The translations under genes were made by a program, and so were the position numbers. The notes beneath the pieces are model-generated. The model saw only the letters and a program-made list of their open reading frames with translations, had not been told where the DNA came from and ran no database searches. From positions 1-61,835 of IMG/VR virus record IMGVR_UViG_3300044816_000047: a stretch of 61,835 nt of DNA. The stretch is one strand, 5' to 3'. Source of the stretch: a virus. Positions 17,380-31,822 of this stretch are shown here, piece by piece. The stretch's first letter is position 1. Each line of letters begins with the position of its first letter.

Positions 17380-18384
17380 TTAAGAAGCCCTTATTTTACG
17401 GGCACTTCTTGCATTTGGTTTAGTCGGCTGTGTCAGATTTGTGCCAGAAATCAGATCCGGCAGCGTCTTGTCCTCGTTAGCGTGTCCGTAGGTCTCCAGA
17501 ACGTGTCGGGCGCTCTTCCAGCCGCCCAGCTTGGCAATGGTCACAACGTCCACCCCGCGGTGCAAGAGTGCCGTAGCGAAGCCGTGGCGGCAGCTATGGA
17601 AGGTCAGGCGATCAATCTTGGCCCGTCGAACAACTGCATCCCAGACGCGGTAGCAGTTCGAGCGAGAGGTATAGAGGAAGACCGGACGATCCTTGATCTT
17701 CTCGATGTTCGCCAGCGCGACGACGAGGGGCTGCGGAAGATGCGCCCGCCGCTCGGCGCCGATCTTGGTCTGTCGGATCAGGACAGTCTTGGCCTTGAAG
17801 TCGATATCCTCCCAGCGGACCCGTAGCGCTTCAGTCACGCGGGCGCCTGTCAGGAACATGAACAAGGCCAGTCCGCCAAGGTGCGGTGTCGAGTGCTTGG
17901 CGAAGGCTTGGCACCATTCGAGGGTTGCAGGCAGTTTGCTTTTGGTTTCGACCTTGAACCGCTTCACGCGGATGCGCGGGCACATCTCGGATTCCGCGGC
18001 GTGGTTGATGATTGCCTGCATCGGGACAATGGCTTGTCGATTGCGGGTGGCCGCTGCCCCGTTCGGGTAAAGCGTCCGGGCCGCCGTCTGGATAGCGCCT
18101 GGGGTAATGTCCCGCACCAAAGTATCCTTCCAGTAGTCCTCTAACCGCTCCAGAAACCGCATCGGCTTCTTGGCAGCGCGGTACGCAATCGACGCCTGCG
18201 CGAACGTCAGGACCGCCGCGGGGCCATTGACACGACGTTTCCACGCTTTGTCCGCAATCTGGGCAGCGATTTCTGCGGCTCTTTCTTTGACCGCTGTGCC
18301 CGTAGAGCCGCGTAATCGCCCGACACCGGGAATTGTGCCCCGGTAGTGGAAGACGCCACCTCGCTTGTAGATTTTAAGGGACAT
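17380..18384 (-). CDS. int: Tyrosine recombinase (phage integrase)
   Basis: 334 aa. N-terminal arm-binding part with an RGSTGT strand; SAM-like core-binding domain about residues 60-150; catalytic domain with LTGARVTEAL (Arg I), a conserved Lys in RQTKIGAERR, FHSCRHGFAT (His-x-x-Arg), GGWKSARHVLETYGHA (Trp in place of His III, then Tyr). It integrates the phage chromosome into the host by site-specific recombination. The attachment site cannot be identified without a host sequence; the area left of 17380 is the natural place to look. Its start overlaps the excisionase gene by 178 bp. Confidence 0.92.
   Translation of the reverse strand: MSLKIYKRGGVFHYRGTIPGVGRLRGSTGTAVKERAAEIAAQIADKAWKRRVNGPAAVLTFAQASIAYRAAKKPMRFLERLEDYWKDTLVRDITPGAIQTAARTLYPNGAAATRNRQAIVPMQAIINHAAESEMCPRIRVKRFKVETKSKLPATLEWCQAFAKHSTPHLGGLALFMFLTGARVTEALRVRWEDIDFKAKTVLIRQTKIGAERRAHLPQPLVVALANIEKIKDRPVFLYTSRSNCYRVWDAVVRRAKIDRLTFHSCRHGFATALLHRGVDVVTIAKLGGWKSARHVLETYGHANEDKTLPDLISGTNLTQPTKPNARSARKIRAS
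17381..17413 (-). terminator. Possible weak terminator overlapping the integrase end
   Basis: On the minus strand, GCCC ... GGGC pairing flanked by AAGAAG/CTTCTT forms a hairpin that includes the last codons of the integrase and its TAA. No long T-run follows, so it may only slow transcription. Confidence 0.3.
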
Positions 18385-26218: not shown

Positions 26219-26721
26219 GCCGCTTCCGCCTCCGCAAGTTCCTTAGTCTCGACTCCGAGCAGCTTCGCTATCACATCCATGATGTCGGACTTGCTCTTCT
26301 GGAACTCGGCGCCACCCATTGCTCGTTTCGACTGACTCTTGGCGGTGTACCGGGTCACGGTCGGGCCTTGCGTGACGACAACGGCGAACTCGTCGATCGG
26401 GCGGATGAAAGCCGCAACCCGCAATGCCTCAGCCTTCGACGAGCAGACAATCGTGTGACTGTCGCTATAGCCGGCGCGGATCAGTGCCCATTTGCGAAGA
26501 TGCTCGGACGAGGGGAATTGATCGCAGAGATGTTCCGGCAGCGTTTTCCATGCCTCGGTCAGCCAAGCGAACTCGTGGCTATGGCTGATCTCGCTCCGCG
26601 GGTAATGCGGAACCAGATTGTAGCGCTCACCAACGACGTACTCCCGGTCAGCGTCGCGAGGGCGCAGGGGTTTCATCACCTCGCCATCCCACGCAAACAT
26701 GATCGGTCGATGGAAGGTCAT
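26215..26721 (-). CDS. Hypothetical protein of the recombination block (168 aa)
   Basis: Begins MTFHRPIMFAWDGEVMKPL; the motif HEFAWLTEAWKTLPEHL and the end RYTAKSQSKRAMGGAEFQKS are shared by a phage family often next to exonuclease and annealing genes (DUF1367-like or ninB-neighbour type). Possibly a recombination mediator. The exact family is not certain. Confidence 0.65.
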   Translation of the reverse strand: MTFHRPIMFAWDGEVMKPLRPRDADREYVVGERYNLVPHYPRSEISHSHEFAWLTEAWKTLPEHLCDQFPSSEHLRKWALIRAGYSDSHTIVCSSKAEALRVAAFIRPIDEFAVVVTQGPTVTRYTAKSQSKRAMGGAEFQKSKSDIMDVIAKLLGVETKELAEAEAA

Positions 26722-27356
26722 GCCGCTTCCTTCTCGCCATAGAGGCTGTTCAACTCGGAGAGTTTGACGGCCATTTCCAGAAGGAACGCGGCGATCTCGG
26801 TTTCCAGTTCTTTGATCCGGACGGGATCGCGGAATATGCGCTTAGTGAAAAGTCGCATGTTCTCAGGCATCCGCGGGTCGTAGGACACAAAATCACAATA
26901 AGATCGGCCAGTGCAGGCAAGTTGAAACTGGATCTGCGTTTCGTATTTCCCTGGCACCGATTGGCCGAGCAGCGTTTCGAGGTGAGTTGCAGTCTGGGGA
27001 CATTTTATTTCCACAAGGCAGTCACCTCCGATCAATCCATCTGGAGAACAGCCAGCTTGGTCGATCTTCGGGTGCGGGACGAAGGCGACTTGTTCGACCG
27101 TGACGCCCTGATAGAACTCATAGGCAGCGCGGGCCTCGGGCTCCGTCTCTGTCCCATGCTGCATCGCTGCATTGGTGTAGGATTCCGCCGGGACACCAGT
27201 CAGGCGCTCCGCAATGAGTTGTGCCATGTAGTTTGCACGGCTGGCGCTGTATCCGCTCTTGGTCTTGGCAACCACGTCAGCAACGCGGGAGGCCGTTACC
27301 TTGCCGAGCCGGAGGGCCTTCCACTCGTCCGAGCCTTGGATGATTTGCTCGCTCAT
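26718..27356 (-). CDS. YqaJ-type viral recombination exonuclease
   Basis: 212 aa. EWKALRLGKVTASRVADVV (start of the YqaJ/lambda Exo fold), HGTETEPEARAAYEF (Glu), AGCSPDGLIGGDCLVEIKCPQ (Asp ... Glu-x-Lys, metal site) and the QIQFQLACTGRSYCDFVSYD helix and strand. A 5'-3' dsDNA exonuclease that provides single strands to the annealing protein encoded just upstream. ATGA overlaps join both genes. Confidence 0.92.
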   Translation of the reverse strand: MSEQIIQGSDEWKALRLGKVTASRVADVVAKTKSGYSASRANYMAQLIAERLTGVPAESYTNAAMQHGTETEPEARAAYEFYQGVTVEQVAFVPHPKIDQAGCSPDGLIGGDCLVEIKCPQTATHLETLLGQSVPGKYETQIQFQLACTGRSYCDFVSYDPRMPENMRLFTKRIFRDPVRIKELETEIAAFLLEMAVKLSELNSLYGEKEAA

Positions 27357-28120
27357 TGTGCCGATCCCTTTTTCTTGCCGATAGCGACGAGCGCGCGCTG
27401 ATAGTCTTTGGCCGGAAGGTCTGCGATGGCGTCAATCTTGAAGTAGCTGCAAAAGGAATCGGAAAAACCTTCTGCAACTTCCTCGCACTTCGCGGCGAGA
27501 TTTGCTGCCTGCTCAGGCGTGATTGTGCTGGAGTTATCTGACGCCTTCCCATCGTCATCGTTCGACGCGGCGAGGCCGAGCGCGGCTTTGAGTGTCATTC
27601 GCTGCAAATAGGTGAGCGTCGATCCAATCATTTGGATCGGGTTTTTATTGCCACTATCGTCGCGACCGGCGCACAAGGTGTTTTCCTCGAAGTGCCCGTC
27701 GCGATGCGATACAATGCAAGTGACCGACACGGGTTCATTGATGTGCGCCGTGGTCCGGAAGCGGTAAGAAAGGCCATACTTGCCAAGTATCGGGTTGACG
27801 ACGCGGGCGATCTCGCCCAAATCCTCATAGCGGTAGTTCGTGCGACCCTTCGCGGAGGTGAAGTCGACCGTGCGATTTTTGCTGATGTTGGGAATTTCAG
27901 CCTTTGCCGACGCCATCGCGCCATCAAACGCCTTGCGGTTCTCCCTGTCCTCCCATCGTTCGTGCATCGCCATGAAGCGCTCAAGGACTTCAGGCGTGGC
28001 ACCGGAGGACACAGCCCGGTTGAGCATGTCCATTGGCGTGAGGGCAGCCGCGCTAATCGGGTAAGTCGGCGCATCATCCTGCGGCGGGAGAATGGAAACC
28101 TTTTTCATTGCGTCAGACAT
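27353..28120 (-). CDS. erf: Erf-family single-strand annealing protein
   Basis: 255 aa. The ERF core FDGAMASAKAEIPNISKNR, YRYEDLGEIARVVNPILGKYGLS, VTCIVSHRDGHFEENTLCAG and IGSTLTYLQRMTLKAALGLA is intact. C-terminal part helical and acidic/basic. Anneals complementary single strands during phage recombination; pairs with the downstream YqaJ exonuclease. Its 5' end overlaps the preceding small gene by 16 bp. Confidence 0.93.
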   Translation of the reverse strand: MSDAMKKVSILPPQDDAPTYPISAAALTPMDMLNRAVSSGATPEVLERFMAMHERWEDRENRKAFDGAMASAKAEIPNISKNRTVDFTSAKGRTNYRYEDLGEIARVVNPILGKYGLSYRFRTTAHINEPVSVTCIVSHRDGHFEENTLCAGRDDSGNKNPIQMIGSTLTYLQRMTLKAALGLAASNDDDGKASDNSSTITPEQAANLAAKCEEVAEGFSDSFCSYFKIDAIADLPAKDYQRALVAIGKKKGSAQ

Positions 28121-28918: not shown

Positions 28919-29062
28919 TTACTTCGAGGTTCGCTTCGGAGCCGGGCGCTTCTGTTGCGCCGCTTCACGCTCCATCTGACGCATCTCGGCCTTAGCCGCG
29001 GCGCCGTAGGTGGTGCCCTTGCTCGACGCTGGTTTGGTTTCGGATTTGGGGGTCTTCGCCAT
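28919..29062 (-). CDS. Small basic protein, paralogue of 9751-9906
   Basis: 47 aa. First gene of the leftward early operon, with GGAG upstream. Its C-terminal 28 residues (GAAAKAEMRQMEREAAQQKR onward) match the plus-strand gene at 9751 in both sequence and codons, so one copy arose by duplication or recombination. Charged helix; perhaps nucleic-acid binding. Confidence 0.65.
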   Translation of the reverse strand: MAKTPKSETKPASSKGTTYGAAAKAEMRQMEREAAQQKRPAPKRTSK

Positions 29063-29099: not shown

Positions 29100-29150
29100 A
29101 CAATAAGTCGGAAAAATCCGACTGTCAACAGAAAGTCGGAAAAATCCGAC
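29100..29150 (-). promoter_or_regulatory. Leftward early promoter with two repressor operators
   Basis: Minus strand: TTGACA (29128-29123), 17-bp spacer, TATTGT (29105-29100). The spacer contains the palindrome GTCGGAAAAATCCGAC (29107-29122). A second identical palindrome is at 29135-29150, 28 bp away centre to centre. Repressor bound at the first site would cover the promoter between -35 and -10. The same motif occurs in the repressor-cro intergenic region. Confidence 0.85.
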
Positions 29151-29205
29151 AAATAGTTTTGGATGTGCTAAAACCCTCCTACCGCAGGCGCGGGGAGGGC
29201 TTCAG

Positions 29206-29580
29206 ATGGCAGACGAAAAATGGGAAAAGACGCTCAAACCGGGCGACACGGTTCCGGTGAAGGATTTCACGATTACCGCCAGCGGCGGCTCGTCTGCACC
29301 GAGCGATCTCGAAAAAACGATGCTTCAGGCTTTCAGCGGGCCGTGGCCTGACTGGAAGGGACCCGCTATCAGCGAGGCTTTATCTGTTGGGATGCAGCCA
29401 AGAGTTCCGCGGCTAACCGCCGAGCTTCATCGCGCGTCATGGGAATCTGAATTTCAAAAGCGTCTGGATGCTGAGAATGAACGGACGCGTAAACAATCAC
29501 CCTTACGCCGGAGCCTGATACGCTGGCTCTCGGCGGCTGCGTCAGCGGCATTACGAATGGTGATTCGCCTTGATAAATGA
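29206..29580 (+). CDS. Hypothetical protein (124 aa), 3' half antisense to another gene
   Basis: Good ribosome-binding site GGGAGG seven bases before ATG. Starts MADEKWEKTLKPGDTVPVKD. The C-terminal 70 residues lie antisense to the 29369-29590 gene and are Arg/Ala-rich, so they may be under weak selection. No family recognised. Promoter probably near the two operators. Confidence 0.55.
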   Translation: MADEKWEKTLKPGDTVPVKDFTITASGGSSAPSDLEKTMLQAFSGPWPDWKGPAISEALSVGMQPRVPRLTAELHRASWESEFQKRLDAENERTRKQSPLRRSLIRWLSAAASAALRMVIRLDK

Positions 29581-29590
29581 TTTCGCCCAT
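29369..29590 (-). CDS. Hypothetical beta-rich protein (73 aa)
   Basis: AGGGGGA lies upstream of the ATG. Strands GVRVIVYASVHSQ and EIQIPMTRDEARRLAAELLA resemble small phage proteins ending in a helix. Convergent with the gene at 29206, which it overlaps by 212 bp at the 3' end. Confidence 0.6.
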   Translation of the reverse strand: MGEIIYQGESPFVMPLTQPPRASVSGSGVRVIVYASVHSQHPDAFEIQIPMTRDEARRLAAELLAASQQIKPR

Positions 29591-29621
29591 CAAATCCCCC
29601 TGAGTGCTGCGAAAGAACAAG

Positions 29622-29786
29622 ATGTCCACTGACGAGCGCCCCGATCTAGATCAACTGATGGCCCAAGGAATGACGATCAGCGAGGCTTTGGCGGCTTGGG
29701 TTGCGTGGCGCCCAAAATCTCAACCAACTTCTTCAAGCTCTGATTTATCTGCCCAAGCTGAAAAGCCGAAAACTCCGCTGCATTGA
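29622..29786 (+). CDS. Small protein (54 aa), 3' part antisense to 29677-29892
   Basis: MSTDERPDLDQLMAQGMTIS then EALAAWVAWRPKS. Weak ribosome-binding site. Its ISEAL region is encoded by a DNA segment also found in the gene at 29206, so both antisense pairs share a sequence element. Confidence 0.4.
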   Translation: MSTDERPDLDQLMAQGMTISEALAAWVAWRPKSQPTSSSSDLSAQAEKPKTPLH

Positions 29787-29892
29787 CCATGCGCTGGTCA
29801 ATCGCTGGGGCAATGTCGGGCACATGGAAGTCGCCTTCCATGCGGGACTTGTAGCGCTCTGCTTGCAGGTTAGTCTCTTCACTCGTTGGCAT
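29677..29892 (-). CDS. Coiled-coil protein (71 aa)
   Basis: GGAG eight bases before the ATG at 29892. DQRMVNAAEFSAFQLGQIN then QSLKKLVEILG: a helical core common in small early proteins; Pro/Lys-rich end. Possibly translated from the repressor transcript. Confidence 0.55.
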   Translation of the reverse strand: MPTSEETNLQAERYKSRMEGDFHVPDIAPAIDQRMVNAAEFSAFQLGQINQSLKKLVEILGATQPKPPKPR

Positions 29893-29935
29893 TATTTTCT
29901 CCATTTTCCATCAAAATCCCCCTGTACCGCAGCGG

Positions 29936-30226
29936 TTAGGTGGCCGGCCGGTTCGGCCAGAAAGCGGAATGGCACGTTGACGTTCCGTCTTTTTCGAGGC
30001 GGCACATTTCCGTCGCGCTTAGTCCAATTACGACCATAGTGAGAACGATCAAGACAACCTTGATTCCAAAGAGCCATTTCAGGTTCATGTCGCGCAATAC
30101 AAACATCCAAGAAATCGCTGCCAGCAGCGTTGCCATCCCTATGTAGACGGCGATCCCAACGCCTAGGCTGTAATTTTGCCAAGCGTAGAGCGCTGGAAAA
30201 ATCGAAATTGTCGTATTCTTGATCAC
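29936..30226 (-). CDS. Membrane protein downstream of the repressor (96 aa)
   Basis: GTG start overlaps the repressor stop (GTGA). Three hydrophobic helices: NYSLGVGIAVYIGMATLLAA, ISWMFVLRD-adjacent, and WLFGIKVVLIVLTMVVIGLS. Being in the lysogenic operon, it would be made in lysogens; superinfection exclusion is a natural hypothesis. Confidence 0.65.
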   Translation of the reverse strand: MIKNTTISIFPALYAWQNYSLGVGIAVYIGMATLLAAISWMFVLRDMNLKWLFGIKVVLIVLTMVVIGLSATEMCRLEKDGTSTCHSAFWPNRPAT

Positions 30227-30852
30227 AGGTCCAACACCGTTCGCTTGACGCGGCCGACGACCATCTTCTCCGCTTCCGCCTTGCTCTTCACATAGATCGG
30301 CTCGTGCACGGGGTTTGTGGAGTAGGGCGCGAAGCGTGGAGGATCGGATCGCCAAAGTTTGAAGGTAGTCTCGCCGCGCCGCGAGATGACGTATGCCCGA
30401 CCAGACACTAAGGTCCGCTCAGCTTGATTGACGACGATCACCGAATTTTCGGGCGACACCCGATCCATGGAATCGCCCTCTACGGTTAGCGCGAAGAAAT
30501 CACCCCTCCCGAGGTCGGCAAACGCCAGTAGTGGAACATCCTCTACAGGGATTTGGGAGGAAATTGATCTGAGTTTTCCAGCGGTTACATTGTCTAACAG
30601 GGGTATTTTGGAGAGTGTTTCGGCCGCGGCTTCATGGTTTCCGATCTGACCTTGCAACTCCGCAACACTCCAATGGAGGGCTTGGGCAACCAAAGCCGCT
30701 TTGGACTGAGAAAACGATCGCTTTTTCCCTTCAATTAGGTCCCGGATATAGTTCCGTTCCAGCCCGGTCACGGACTGGGTAGCCTCGACCGCGCCAACCT
30801 CCAATTCGCGCAGTCTCTTCTCAACCCTTTGACGAAGTTCATTAATTGCCAT
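30223..30852 (-). CDS. CI-type repressor with S24 peptidase domain
   Basis: 209 aa. Residues 1-65: helix-turn-helix DNA-binding domain (VTGLERNYIRDLIEGKKRSF, AALVAQALHWSVAEL). Residues 110-205: LexA-like S24 domain with FFALTVEGDSMDRVSPENSV (catalytic Ser) and RRGETTFKLWRS (catalytic Lys). The AG cleavage site in the linker is not obvious. Likely maintains lysogeny and is inactivated by RecA-stimulated self-cleavage. Operators GTCGGA-N4-TCCGAC surround it. No ribosome-binding site precedes the ATG, so its transcript may be leaderless. Confidence 0.92.
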   Translation of the reverse strand: MAINELRQRVEKRLRELEVGAVEATQSVTGLERNYIRDLIEGKKRSFSQSKAALVAQALHWSVAELQGQIGNHEAAAETLSKIPLLDNVTAGKLRSISSQIPVEDVPLLAFADLGRGDFFALTVEGDSMDRVSPENSVIVVNQAERTLVSGRAYVISRRGETTFKLWRSDPPRFAPYSTNPVHEPIYVKSKAEAEKMVVGRVKRTVLDL

Positions 30853-30935
30853 GGCGGATTTATCCGACTTTCCGCCTCATTTGGCGAATGGGATGTTTCC
30901 GACTTTTTGCGCTTGCAAAGTCGGAATTTTCCGAC
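30853..30935. promoter_or_regulatory. Three operators between repressor and Cro-like gene
   Basis: Sites by the GTCGGA-N4-TCCGAC pattern: GGCGGATTTATCCGAC (30853-30868, one mismatch), ATGGGATGTTTCCGAC (30888-30903, two mismatches) and GTCGGAATTTTCCGAC (30920-30935, perfect). Centres are 35 and 32 bp apart. A half-site GTCGGG follows at 30943. Three graded sites between divergent genes resemble the right operator of lambda-like switches. Confidence 0.85.
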
Positions 30936-30941
30936 TAAAAC
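30913..30941 (+). promoter_or_regulatory. Rightward early promoter, operator in the spacer
   Basis: TTGCAA (30913-30918), 17-bp spacer holding the perfect operator, TAAAAC (30936-30941). The expected start of transcription is within a few bases of the ATG at 30951, so the Cro-like message would be leaderless. Confidence 0.7.
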
Positions 30942-30950
30942 AGTCGGGCC

Positions 30951-31208
30951 ATGGAAAATGAGCTTCGATCAAACCTCCTGTCTTGCGCGGCGGCCTATGC
31001 CGCGAAAAGGAAAACTAAGCTTTCCACCCTTGGCCGGTTAGCAGCCGGCGATTGGCGGTTTTTCAGCAATCTTGATGCAGACGACAAGACCTTCACGGCA
31101 CGCAAATACGATGAGGTCTTGCAGTGGTTTTCGGCCAACTGGCCAGAAGACGCGGATTGGCCAGCCAACATTGAGCGGCCCGCCTCAGTAGAAATGGGGG
31201 CGGTATGA
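30951..31208 (+). CDS. Cro-like regulator
   Basis: 85 aa. Helical core SCAAAYAAKRKTKLSTLGRL, AAGDWRFFSNLDADDKTFTA and YDEVLQWFSANWPEDADWP, a pattern of small regulators that lie opposite S24 repressors in alphaproteobacterial phages. First gene of the rightward early operon, divergent from the repressor across three operators; it should bind the same sites. Stop overlaps the next start (ATGA). Confidence 0.8.
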   Translation: MENELRSNLLSCAAAYAAKRKTKLSTLGRLAAGDWRFFSNLDADDKTFTARKYDEVLQWFSANWPEDADWPANIERPASVEMGAV

Positions 31209-31822
31209 CCGCCTCTAGCCGCGTCTACTTCATCAAGCCAGTCGGCATGGACGGACCAATCAAAATTGGGTGCTCGGCGCTTCCAGAAAAGCGTCTTGCA
31301 GACCTGATGGCATGGTCGCCTCTTCCCCTCGAAGTGATCGGAAGCGTTGCCGGCACCATCAACGATGAGCAATTTTTGCACGGTTGTTTTGCGCATATTC
31401 ATTCGCATCGGGAATGGTTTCACTCCAGTTTGCCGTTGCGAAACATGATCTCTGAAATCATCGCGGCCGGATCGATCGCGCCAGCGCGTGCTGCGATGAA
31501 ACCGACAGGCAGTATCCGAAAGGGTGGCAGAAAGAATTGGACTCCGGACCAACGGAAGCAATCTTCCTACGGTCATCGCATCCGGTGGGCTCTCAACAAA
31601 CTTCGGCGCGAGGACGAAACAGAAATAGTTTATGCGACCGTACCTGATGAAGTGCGGGCGATTATGACCAAATGGCACGGGAACCCGTATAGGGGCAGAC
31701 CGGGCCCACCGGCGACCGATGCAGAAGTCGCGCGGCTTGAAGCATTTTTGGCAAATCCATCCGGCCAAGTTCATTTGAGCTGCATTCCGCGCATCCGTCC
31801 GAAAAGCGGGGCTGCCGCATGA
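31205..31822 (+). CDS. GIY-YIG / T5orf172-like protein with C-terminal DNA-binding region
   Basis: 205 aa. Residues 5-90: SRVYFIKPVGMDGPIKIGCS, RLADLMAWSPLPLEVIGSVAG and EQFLHGCFAHIHSHREWF form the T5orf172 fold. The second half contains RKGGRKNWTPDQRKQSS and may bind DNA. Similar to the protein at 16722-17342 in fold only. Perhaps a nuclease or regulator. Confidence 0.75.
   Translation: MTASSRVYFIKPVGMDGPIKIGCSALPEKRLADLMAWSPLPLEVIGSVAGTINDEQFLHGCFAHIHSHREWFHSSLPLRNMISEIIAAGSIAPARAAMKPTGSIRKGGRKNWTPDQRKQSSYGHRIRWALNKLRREDETEIVYATVPDEVRAIMTKWHGNPYRGRPGPPATDAEVARLEAFLANPSGQVHLSCIPRIRPKSGAAA

What the first reader, a model, noticed from the sequence alone, without database searches (positions are those of the whole stretch)
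29100..30941. Lysogeny switch code: five GTCGGA-N4-TCCGAC operators
Three perfect and two degenerate palindromes lie in two clusters: two left of the small-gene block (29107-29122, 29135-29150) and three between the repressor and Cro-like genes. In both the leftward (TTGACA-17-TATTGT) and the rightward (TTGCAA-17-TAAAAC) promoter the 17-bp spacer contains the operator. The graded right sites suggest ordered binding by repressor and Cro.
Basis: seen in the sequence. Interest (0 to 1): 0.78.

Follow-up and report, generated by a model that had tools for sequence, protein, structure and literature searches.

The report
Lambda-like phage lysogeny-switch operators
Five copies of a 16-letter palindrome in this phage genome are almost certainly the DNA docking sites of its on/off switch between dormancy and killing, laid out much as in phage lambda but in a family of rhizobial and other soil-bacterium phages for which I found no published switch study.

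Summary
In detail: three perfect and two imperfect GTCGGA-N4-TCCGAC sites lie at the stated coordinates; chance predicts 0.01 perfect sites per 62 kb. They form OL (two sites, in and beside PL, which drives an Erf/exonuclease operon) and OR (three sites between an S24-type repressor and a small divergent gene). The explanation rests on comparison. In 37 related immunity regions the operator cores fall on a fixed lattice: OR3 touches the repressor start codon, OR2 lies 35 bp further on, OR1 another 23 or 31-33 bp on, inside the PR spacer. PL and the OL pair recur in 28. Operators follow the repressor's N-terminal domain: L018 shares only that domain and keeps GTCGGA; L031-L033 share only the C-terminal domain and lack it. 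The OR3 core also carries a probable PRM -10, predicting leaderless repressor mRNA; the degenerate OR2 is identical in eight phages, so it is selected, not decayed. This is a lambda-type switch with its own operator family and geometry: a new variant of a known kind. Unproven: binding by either protein, the Cro role of the small gene, order of filling, transcription starts, looping. Related phages run the same operators with unrelated repressor C-terminal domains or none.

The parts
29107..29122 (.). OL1 operator GTCGGAAAAATCCGAC, fills the PL -35/-10 spacer
   Evidence: same place in 28 immunity regions
29135..29150 (.). OL2 operator GTCGGAAAAATCCGAC, just upstream of the PL -35, 28 bp from OL1
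   Evidence: OL pair spacing 28-30 bp in all but one relative (24 bp)
29123..29128 (-). PL -35 TTGACA
   Evidence: TTGAC[AG] directly before the operator in nearly all relatives
29100..29105 (-). PL -10 TATTGT
28919..29062 (-). first small gene of the PL (leftward) operon, ATG at 29062
   Evidence: ORF (internal ATG); no family hit
27353..28120 (-). Erf-like single-strand annealing protein, PL operon
   Evidence: PHROG 155, 6.5e-34
26718..27356 (-). exonuclease (PHROG 149), PL operon
   Evidence: 1.8e-50
30223..30852 (-). prophage repressor: N-terminal DNA-binding domain (about 1-70) and Peptidase_S24 domain (84-202); A91-G92, S128, K165 invariant in close relatives
   Evidence: Pfam PF00717 4.8e-12, PHROG 4, alignment A2
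30853..30868 (.). OR3 operator GGCGGATTTATCCGAC, abuts the repressor start codon
   Evidence: core at +4 from repressor ATG in 37 immunity regions
30859..30864 (-). putative PRM -10 GATAAA inside OR3, 6 nt before the repressor ATG (leaderless mRNA predicted)
   Evidence: OR3 minus-strand cores are YANN in 35 of 37 loci, against 2 of 37 (OR2) and 5 of 37 (OR1)
30882..30887 (-). putative PRM -35 TCGCCA (weak), abutting OR2
   Evidence: 17 bp before the -10; hexamer positions T1 and G3 invariant in 15 sequences
30888..30903 (.). OR2 operator ATGGGATGTTTCCGAC, centre -43.5 from the repressor ATG
   Evidence: identical in 8 phages; core at +39 in 31 of 37 loci
30913..30918 (+). PR -35 TTGCAA
   Evidence: TTG partly conserved among close relatives, TTGAC in many others
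30920..30935 (.). OR1 operator GTCGGAATTTTCCGAC inside the PR spacer
30936..30941 (+). PR -10 TAAAAC (TATnnn in most relatives); ATG follows 9 nt later
30951..31208 (+). Cro-like small protein (85 aa, PHROG 7669, function unknown), first gene of the PR operon
   Evidence: PHROG 3.4e-21; four-helix model with a helix-turn-helix shape; weak XRE-type fold matches
17380..18384 (-). integrase, shows a temperate phage
   Evidence: PHROG 1, 5.4e-37

Best explanation
The five palindromes are the operators of a lambda-type lysis-lysogeny switch. Dimers of the S24-type repressor, through its N-terminal domain, bind GTCGGA-N4-TCCGAC at OL1 and OR1, each lying in a promoter spacer, and so block PL (recombination operon) and PR (Cro-like gene and the right operon). 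Repressor at OR2, which abuts the PRM -35 with its centre 43.5 bp upstream of the repressor start codon, probably helps RNA polymerase at PRM. OR3 overlaps the PRM -10 and abuts the start codon; filling it, by the Cro-like protein early in lytic growth or by excess repressor, shuts repressor synthesis off. DNA damage would trigger RecA-stimulated cleavage of the repressor at Ala91-Gly92. Shown here: the sites, their significance, promoter overlap, fixed geometry in relatives, and the link of operator to the repressor N-terminal domain. Inferred: actual binding, PRM activation, the Cro role, leaderless mRNAs, cleavage.
For: Sites and statistics. Gene content: S24 repressor and PHROG 4, Erf and exonuclease under PL, integrase. 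Fixed lattice: the core GGA-N4-TCC lies at +4 in 37 immunity regions, and of all 105 cores in those intergenic regions 31 more are at +39, 19 at +62, 17 at +70 to +72 and only one elsewhere. PL with the operator in its spacer and an OL pair 28-30 bp apart (24 bp in one) in 28 regions including the window. Operator follows the repressor N-domain: L018 is 69% identical to the window repressor over residues 1-68, its C-domain matches Agrobacterium phage Rivra instead, and it keeps GTCGGA; L031, L032 and L033 share 65-69% of the C-domain, have no matching N-domain, and lack the operator; L032 carries another palindrome, GTAGCG-N5-CGCTAC. Specificity of the motif: TTGACN+operator occurs once in 118 genomes of the genus of G001 (the genome holding L031, a Bradyrhizobium), and that one hit is a complete copy of the module. 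OR3 core carries a -10 in 35 of 37. Integrated copy in a 948-kb Bradyrhizobium tropiciagri contig (L030). Cleavage residues invariant.
Against: No binding, transcription or induction data exist. The comparison is among related phages, so the 37 regions are not independent. The Cro-like protein has no Pfam hit and its best structure matches have E above 1. PR -10 (TAAAAC) and both PRM boxes are weak matches to consensus. The N-terminal domain of the window repressor itself has no Pfam HTH hit, though related repressors do.
Confidence: 0.92

Rival explanations
1. Repressor-only switch: the five sites are repressor operators, but the small divergent protein is not a Cro that binds them; it could act on another protein or elsewhere.
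For: No Pfam family, PHROG 7669 has no known function; fold matches not significant.
Against: It is the gene directly behind PR in the relatives examined; the deeper model shows a helix-turn-helix arrangement, and the listed matches are nearly all XRE/Cro-C1 type DNA-binding proteins, the P22 c2 repressor domain among them; its putative recognition stretch changes with operator class (GDWRFF with GGA-type operators, DSKKL with CGGTAA-type operators).
Confidence: 0.2
2. Same switch, but without repressor-activated PRM: OR2 only adds cooperative repression of PR, and repressor transcription comes from an unassisted promoter.
For: Some relatives lack a clear OR2 core (31 of 37 have it); activation cannot be seen in sequence.
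Against: The OR2 to repressor-ATG distance is the same (+39) in both spacing classes while OR2-OR1 changes by about 9 bp, as expected if OR2 serves PRM; the PRM boxes are weak, as in activator-dependent promoters.
Confidence: 0.3
3. The palindromes are RNA hairpins (terminators or attenuators) rather than operators.
For: The terminator scan flags the OL palindromes.
Against: OL1 and OR1 lie between -35 and -10, upstream of the start point, so are not in the PL/PR transcripts; the arms are constant in sequence across relatives; the motif is tied to one protein domain.
Confidence: 0.02
4. Sites for a host regulator that the phage borrows.
For: Phage promoters can carry host regulator sites (general knowledge).
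Against: The PL-operator pattern is absent from 117 of 118 genomes of a host genus and the one occurrence is a prophage copy; the operator varies with the phage repressor.
Confidence: 0.02

Closest known systems
Phage lambda / 434 / P22 / HK022 immunity regions (OL-OR, CI-Cro)
   Same: Divergent repressor and cro-like genes, three right and two left 16-bp palindromic operators, operators inside PL and PR, PL driving recombination genes, self-cleaving type repressor, OR2 at an activating distance from PRM, OL-OR separation 1.8 kb here (about 700 bp in HK022 and 2.3 kb in lambda, PMC8053113).
   Different: Different operator sequence; OR3-OR2 35 bp and OR2-OR1 32 bp centre to centre (about 23-24 bp in lambda, from memory); OR3 abuts the repressor start codon and carries the -10 in its core; two left operators, not three; no solved-structure relative by sequence.
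Telomere phages PY54, N15, phiKO2 (immB)
   Same: OR3 is a 16-bp palindrome immediately upstream of the repressor gene; PY54 cI and cro mRNAs are both leaderless (PMC4488713), as predicted here.
   Different: PY54 has a single Cro site and other operator sequences; leaderless starts are only predicted here.
Agrobacterium phage Rivra (PV764937)
   Same: Same layout with OL pair, OR2/OR1, repressor and Cro-like protein (49% identical; layout).
   Different: Operators are GTGGGA..TCCCAC, OR2-OR1 spacing is 22 bp, and the repressor C-domain is of another type.
Caulobacter phage DMCA repressor
   Same: Nearest alphaproteobacterial phage protein in the annotated phage set, 37% over 81% of the window repressor.
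   Different: No GTCGGA operators found near it.

Membership tests
Lambda-type immunity region (as a mode of working) | Divergent repressor and cro genes with several related operators between them | tested here: met
Lambda-type immunity region (as a mode of working) | Second operator cluster on an early-left promoter that drives recombination genes | tested here: met
Lambda-type immunity region (as a mode of working) | Operators overlap the early promoters and the repressor promoter | tested here: met
   sequence overlap only
Lambda-type immunity region (as a mode of working) | Repressor and Cro bind the same operators with reversed preference | not testable with these tools
   needs purified proteins
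Lambda-type immunity region (as a mode of working) | Small divergent protein is a Cro-type HTH DNA-binding protein | tested here: inconclusive
   helix-turn-helix-like model, pLDDT 78; best PDB matches XRE-type but E above 1
Lambda-type immunity region (as a mode of working) | N antiterminator, CII and CIII genes | not tested
   not searched for
Lambdoid lineage by descent | Repressor recognisably homologous to lambda/434/P22 repressors of solved structure | tested here: not met
   no PDB chain at E 0.001 by sequence; shares only the widespread S24 domain
S24/LexA-type self-cleaving repressors | Peptidase_S24 domain | tested here: met
   PF00717 4.8e-12, above the curated cut-off
S24/LexA-type self-cleaving repressors | Ala-Gly cleavage site, catalytic Ser and Lys | tested here: met
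   A91-G92, S128, K165 invariant in 7 repressors; residue roles by analogy
S24/LexA-type self-cleaving repressors | RecA-stimulated cleavage | not testable with these tools
   biochemical
PY54-like switch with leaderless cI and cro mRNAs | Transcription starts at the AUG of both genes | not testable with these tools
   promoter positions predict it for the repressor and nearly so for the Cro-like gene

The most novel reading that the evidence does not exclude
One switch chassis, whose operator lattice is held fixed by the repressor promoter, is shared by temperate phages of many alphaproteobacteria, while two parts are exchanged independently: the operator half-site together with the repressor N-domain (and Cro-like helix), and the repressor C-terminal module that decides how the prophage is induced (S24 types, a two-HTH type, or none at all). 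Phages with unrelated induction logic would then be mutually immune because they read the same GTCGGA code.
Probability: 0.5. Interest if true: 0.6.

Novelty: new variant of a known kind. Interest (0 to 1): 0.45.

Why it matters
It gives a complete, testable operator map for a group of phages of nitrogen-fixing and other soil alphaproteobacteria for which I found no operator study in the searched literature, and it predicts immunity groups directly from sequence. The spread of repressor types on one fixed operator lattice offers a natural experiment on which parts of the lambda switch geometry are essential. It also assigns a likely role (Cro) to a protein family annotated as hypothetical or of unknown function.

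Tried and rejected
RNA hairpin/terminator reading: rejected, the promoter-embedded sites lie upstream of the start points. Host regulator: rejected by the genus scan. CtrA boxes (TTAA-N7-TTAA) in the window and CcrM GANTC sites near OL/OR: none found. PDB sequence search with the repressor found nothing. A first script mis-parsed BLAST columns (corrected). One Pfam call failed on wrong coordinates (redone). The five ORFs tested between OL and the repressor have no relatives in the loci. Literature searches for GTCGGA operators, Bradyrhizobium prophage repressors and alphaproteobacterial Cro sites gave no description of this system, within an open-access library only. A residue-to-base code in the repressor helix (ERN with GTCGGA, ERT with GTGGGA) is suggestive but has exceptions (L081, L062, L079) and is confounded by descent, so it is not claimed.

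Full report
OBSERVATION. The five sites are present at the stated coordinates. Three are perfect (29107-29122, 29135-29150, 30920-30935), one has one mismatch (30853-30868) and one has two (30888-30903). Perfect sites are expected 0.01 times per window and sites with at most one mismatch 0.28 times; GTCGGA-N4-TCCGAC is the only 6-N4-6 palindrome seen to recur in the window. No further site with at most one mismatch exists in the record. Both promoters are as described; PL scores 10 of 12, PR is weak.

SETTING. The record is a virus contig with an integrase (17380-18384), terminase and portal. The repressor (30223-30852, minus) has an S24 domain with the A-G site and the Ser and Lys of the S24 dyad invariant among seven relatives. 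The small divergent gene (30951-31208) belongs to PHROG 7669, of unknown function. The leftward operon under PL carries Erf and exonuclease genes. This is the lambda arrangement: early-left operon, OL, small genes, repressor, OR, cro position, right operon.

COMPARATIVE FOOTPRINT. Relatives were fetched with the repressor, with the Cro-like protein, with its profile and with the operator pair itself. In 37 immunity regions the operator core GGA-N4-TCC lies exactly 4 bp upstream of the repressor ATG. All 105 cores in those intergenic regions but one fall at +4 (37), +39 (31), +62 (19) or +70 to +72 (17). So OR3-OR2 is 35 bp wherever both are present, and OR2-OR1 is either 23 or 31-33 bp, a difference of about one helical turn. 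OR2 keeps its distance to the repressor start in both classes, which suggests that it serves the repressor promoter. The OL pair recurs in 28 regions at 28-30 bp spacing (24 in one), with TTGAC[AG] directly before the operator in nearly all. OL-OR distance varies from about 0.3 to 5.8 kb, and the small ORFs in between are not conserved, as expected of cargo.

WHO BINDS. L018 shares only residues 1-68 with the window repressor (69%); its C-domain resembles that of Agrobacterium phage Rivra and not that of the window; it keeps the GTCGGA lattice. L031, L032 and L033 share only the C-domain (65-69%), have no detectable N-domain match and lack the operator; L032 has its own repeated palindrome. 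Operator specificity thus travels with the N-terminal domain. As a specificity control, TTGACN plus the operator was sought in 118 genomes of the genus of G001, the genome that holds L031 (a Bradyrhizobium): one hit, which is a complete copy of the module with a 60% identical repressor and a 56% identical Cro-like protein.

PROMOTER WITHIN OPERATOR. On the minus strand the OR3 core reads YANN in 35 of 37 loci, against 2 of 37 in OR2 and 5 of 37 in OR1. With its flank this gives GAYA, a -10 element 6 nt before the repressor ATG, so the repressor mRNA should start at its AUG. A weak -35 (TCGCCA) lies 17 bp upstream and abuts OR2; its first and third positions are invariant in 15 aligned sequences. 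The degenerate OR2, ATGGGATGTTTCCGAC, is identical in eight phages whose repressors are down to about 60% identical, so the degeneracy is maintained. PY54 has experimentally mapped leaderless cI and cro mRNAs and an OR3 immediately upstream of the repressor gene (PMC4488713), so these predictions have a precedent.

THE CRO-LIKE PROTEIN. A 67-sequence alignment gave a model with helices 2-20, 24-31, 37-42 and 50-63 (mean pLDDT 78). The PDB matches listed are nearly all XRE/Cro-C1 type DNA-binding proteins, but none is significant. The presumed recognition stretch differs between phages with GGA-type and CGGTAA-type operators. Cro function is therefore likely but not established.

VARIATION IN RELATIVES. 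Of 35 repressors in GGA-class switches, 25 have an S24 domain; others are two-HTH proteins (L040 group) or 76-79 aa single-domain proteins (L017, L019, L020, L055, L064) in which OL lies about 270 bp from OR. Some phages have different half-sites at OR3 and OR1 (L067, L068: GTCGGA-type against GTAGGA).

VERDICT. Main limits: relatives are not independent, and nothing here measures binding or transcription. Statements about lambda geometry are from general knowledge unless a paper is cited.

Noticed in passing
L017, L019, L020, L055, L064: Single-domain repressors of 76-79 aa without any C-terminal domain, on the same operator lattice; OL sits about 270 bp from OR. How such prophages would be induced is unclear.
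   Followed up: partly
L067, L068 (OR region): OR3 is GTCGGA type while OR1 is a perfect GTAGGA..TCCTAC palindrome, a possible split code that would let repressor and Cro prefer different sites.
   Followed up: no
L131 (Agrobacterium phage Rivra) 2456-2743: The Cro-like gene is annotated as a hypothetical protein with a start 45 nt earlier than the conserved ATG at 2501, which would place the start inside the putative PR.
   Followed up: partly
window 29206-29580, plus strand: ORF of 124 aa directly right of OL with a good Shine-Dalgarno-like sequence (GGGGAGGG), running against the repressor operon; no relatives found.
   Followed up: partly
window 29174-29199: CCCTCC...GGAGGG inverted repeat followed on the minus strand by TTTT, a possible terminator of the repressor operon just before OL (loop too long for the scan).
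   Followed up: no
L028, L029, L102, L106, L117, L119 and others: A second large class with the same layout but CGGTAA-type palindromes and TTGAC promoters, also in Rhizobium phage RHph_N3_2 (L133).
   Followed up: partly
window 31205-31822: Gene after the Cro-like one has a T5orf172/MUG113 (GIY-YIG-like) domain near cut-off.
   Followed up: no
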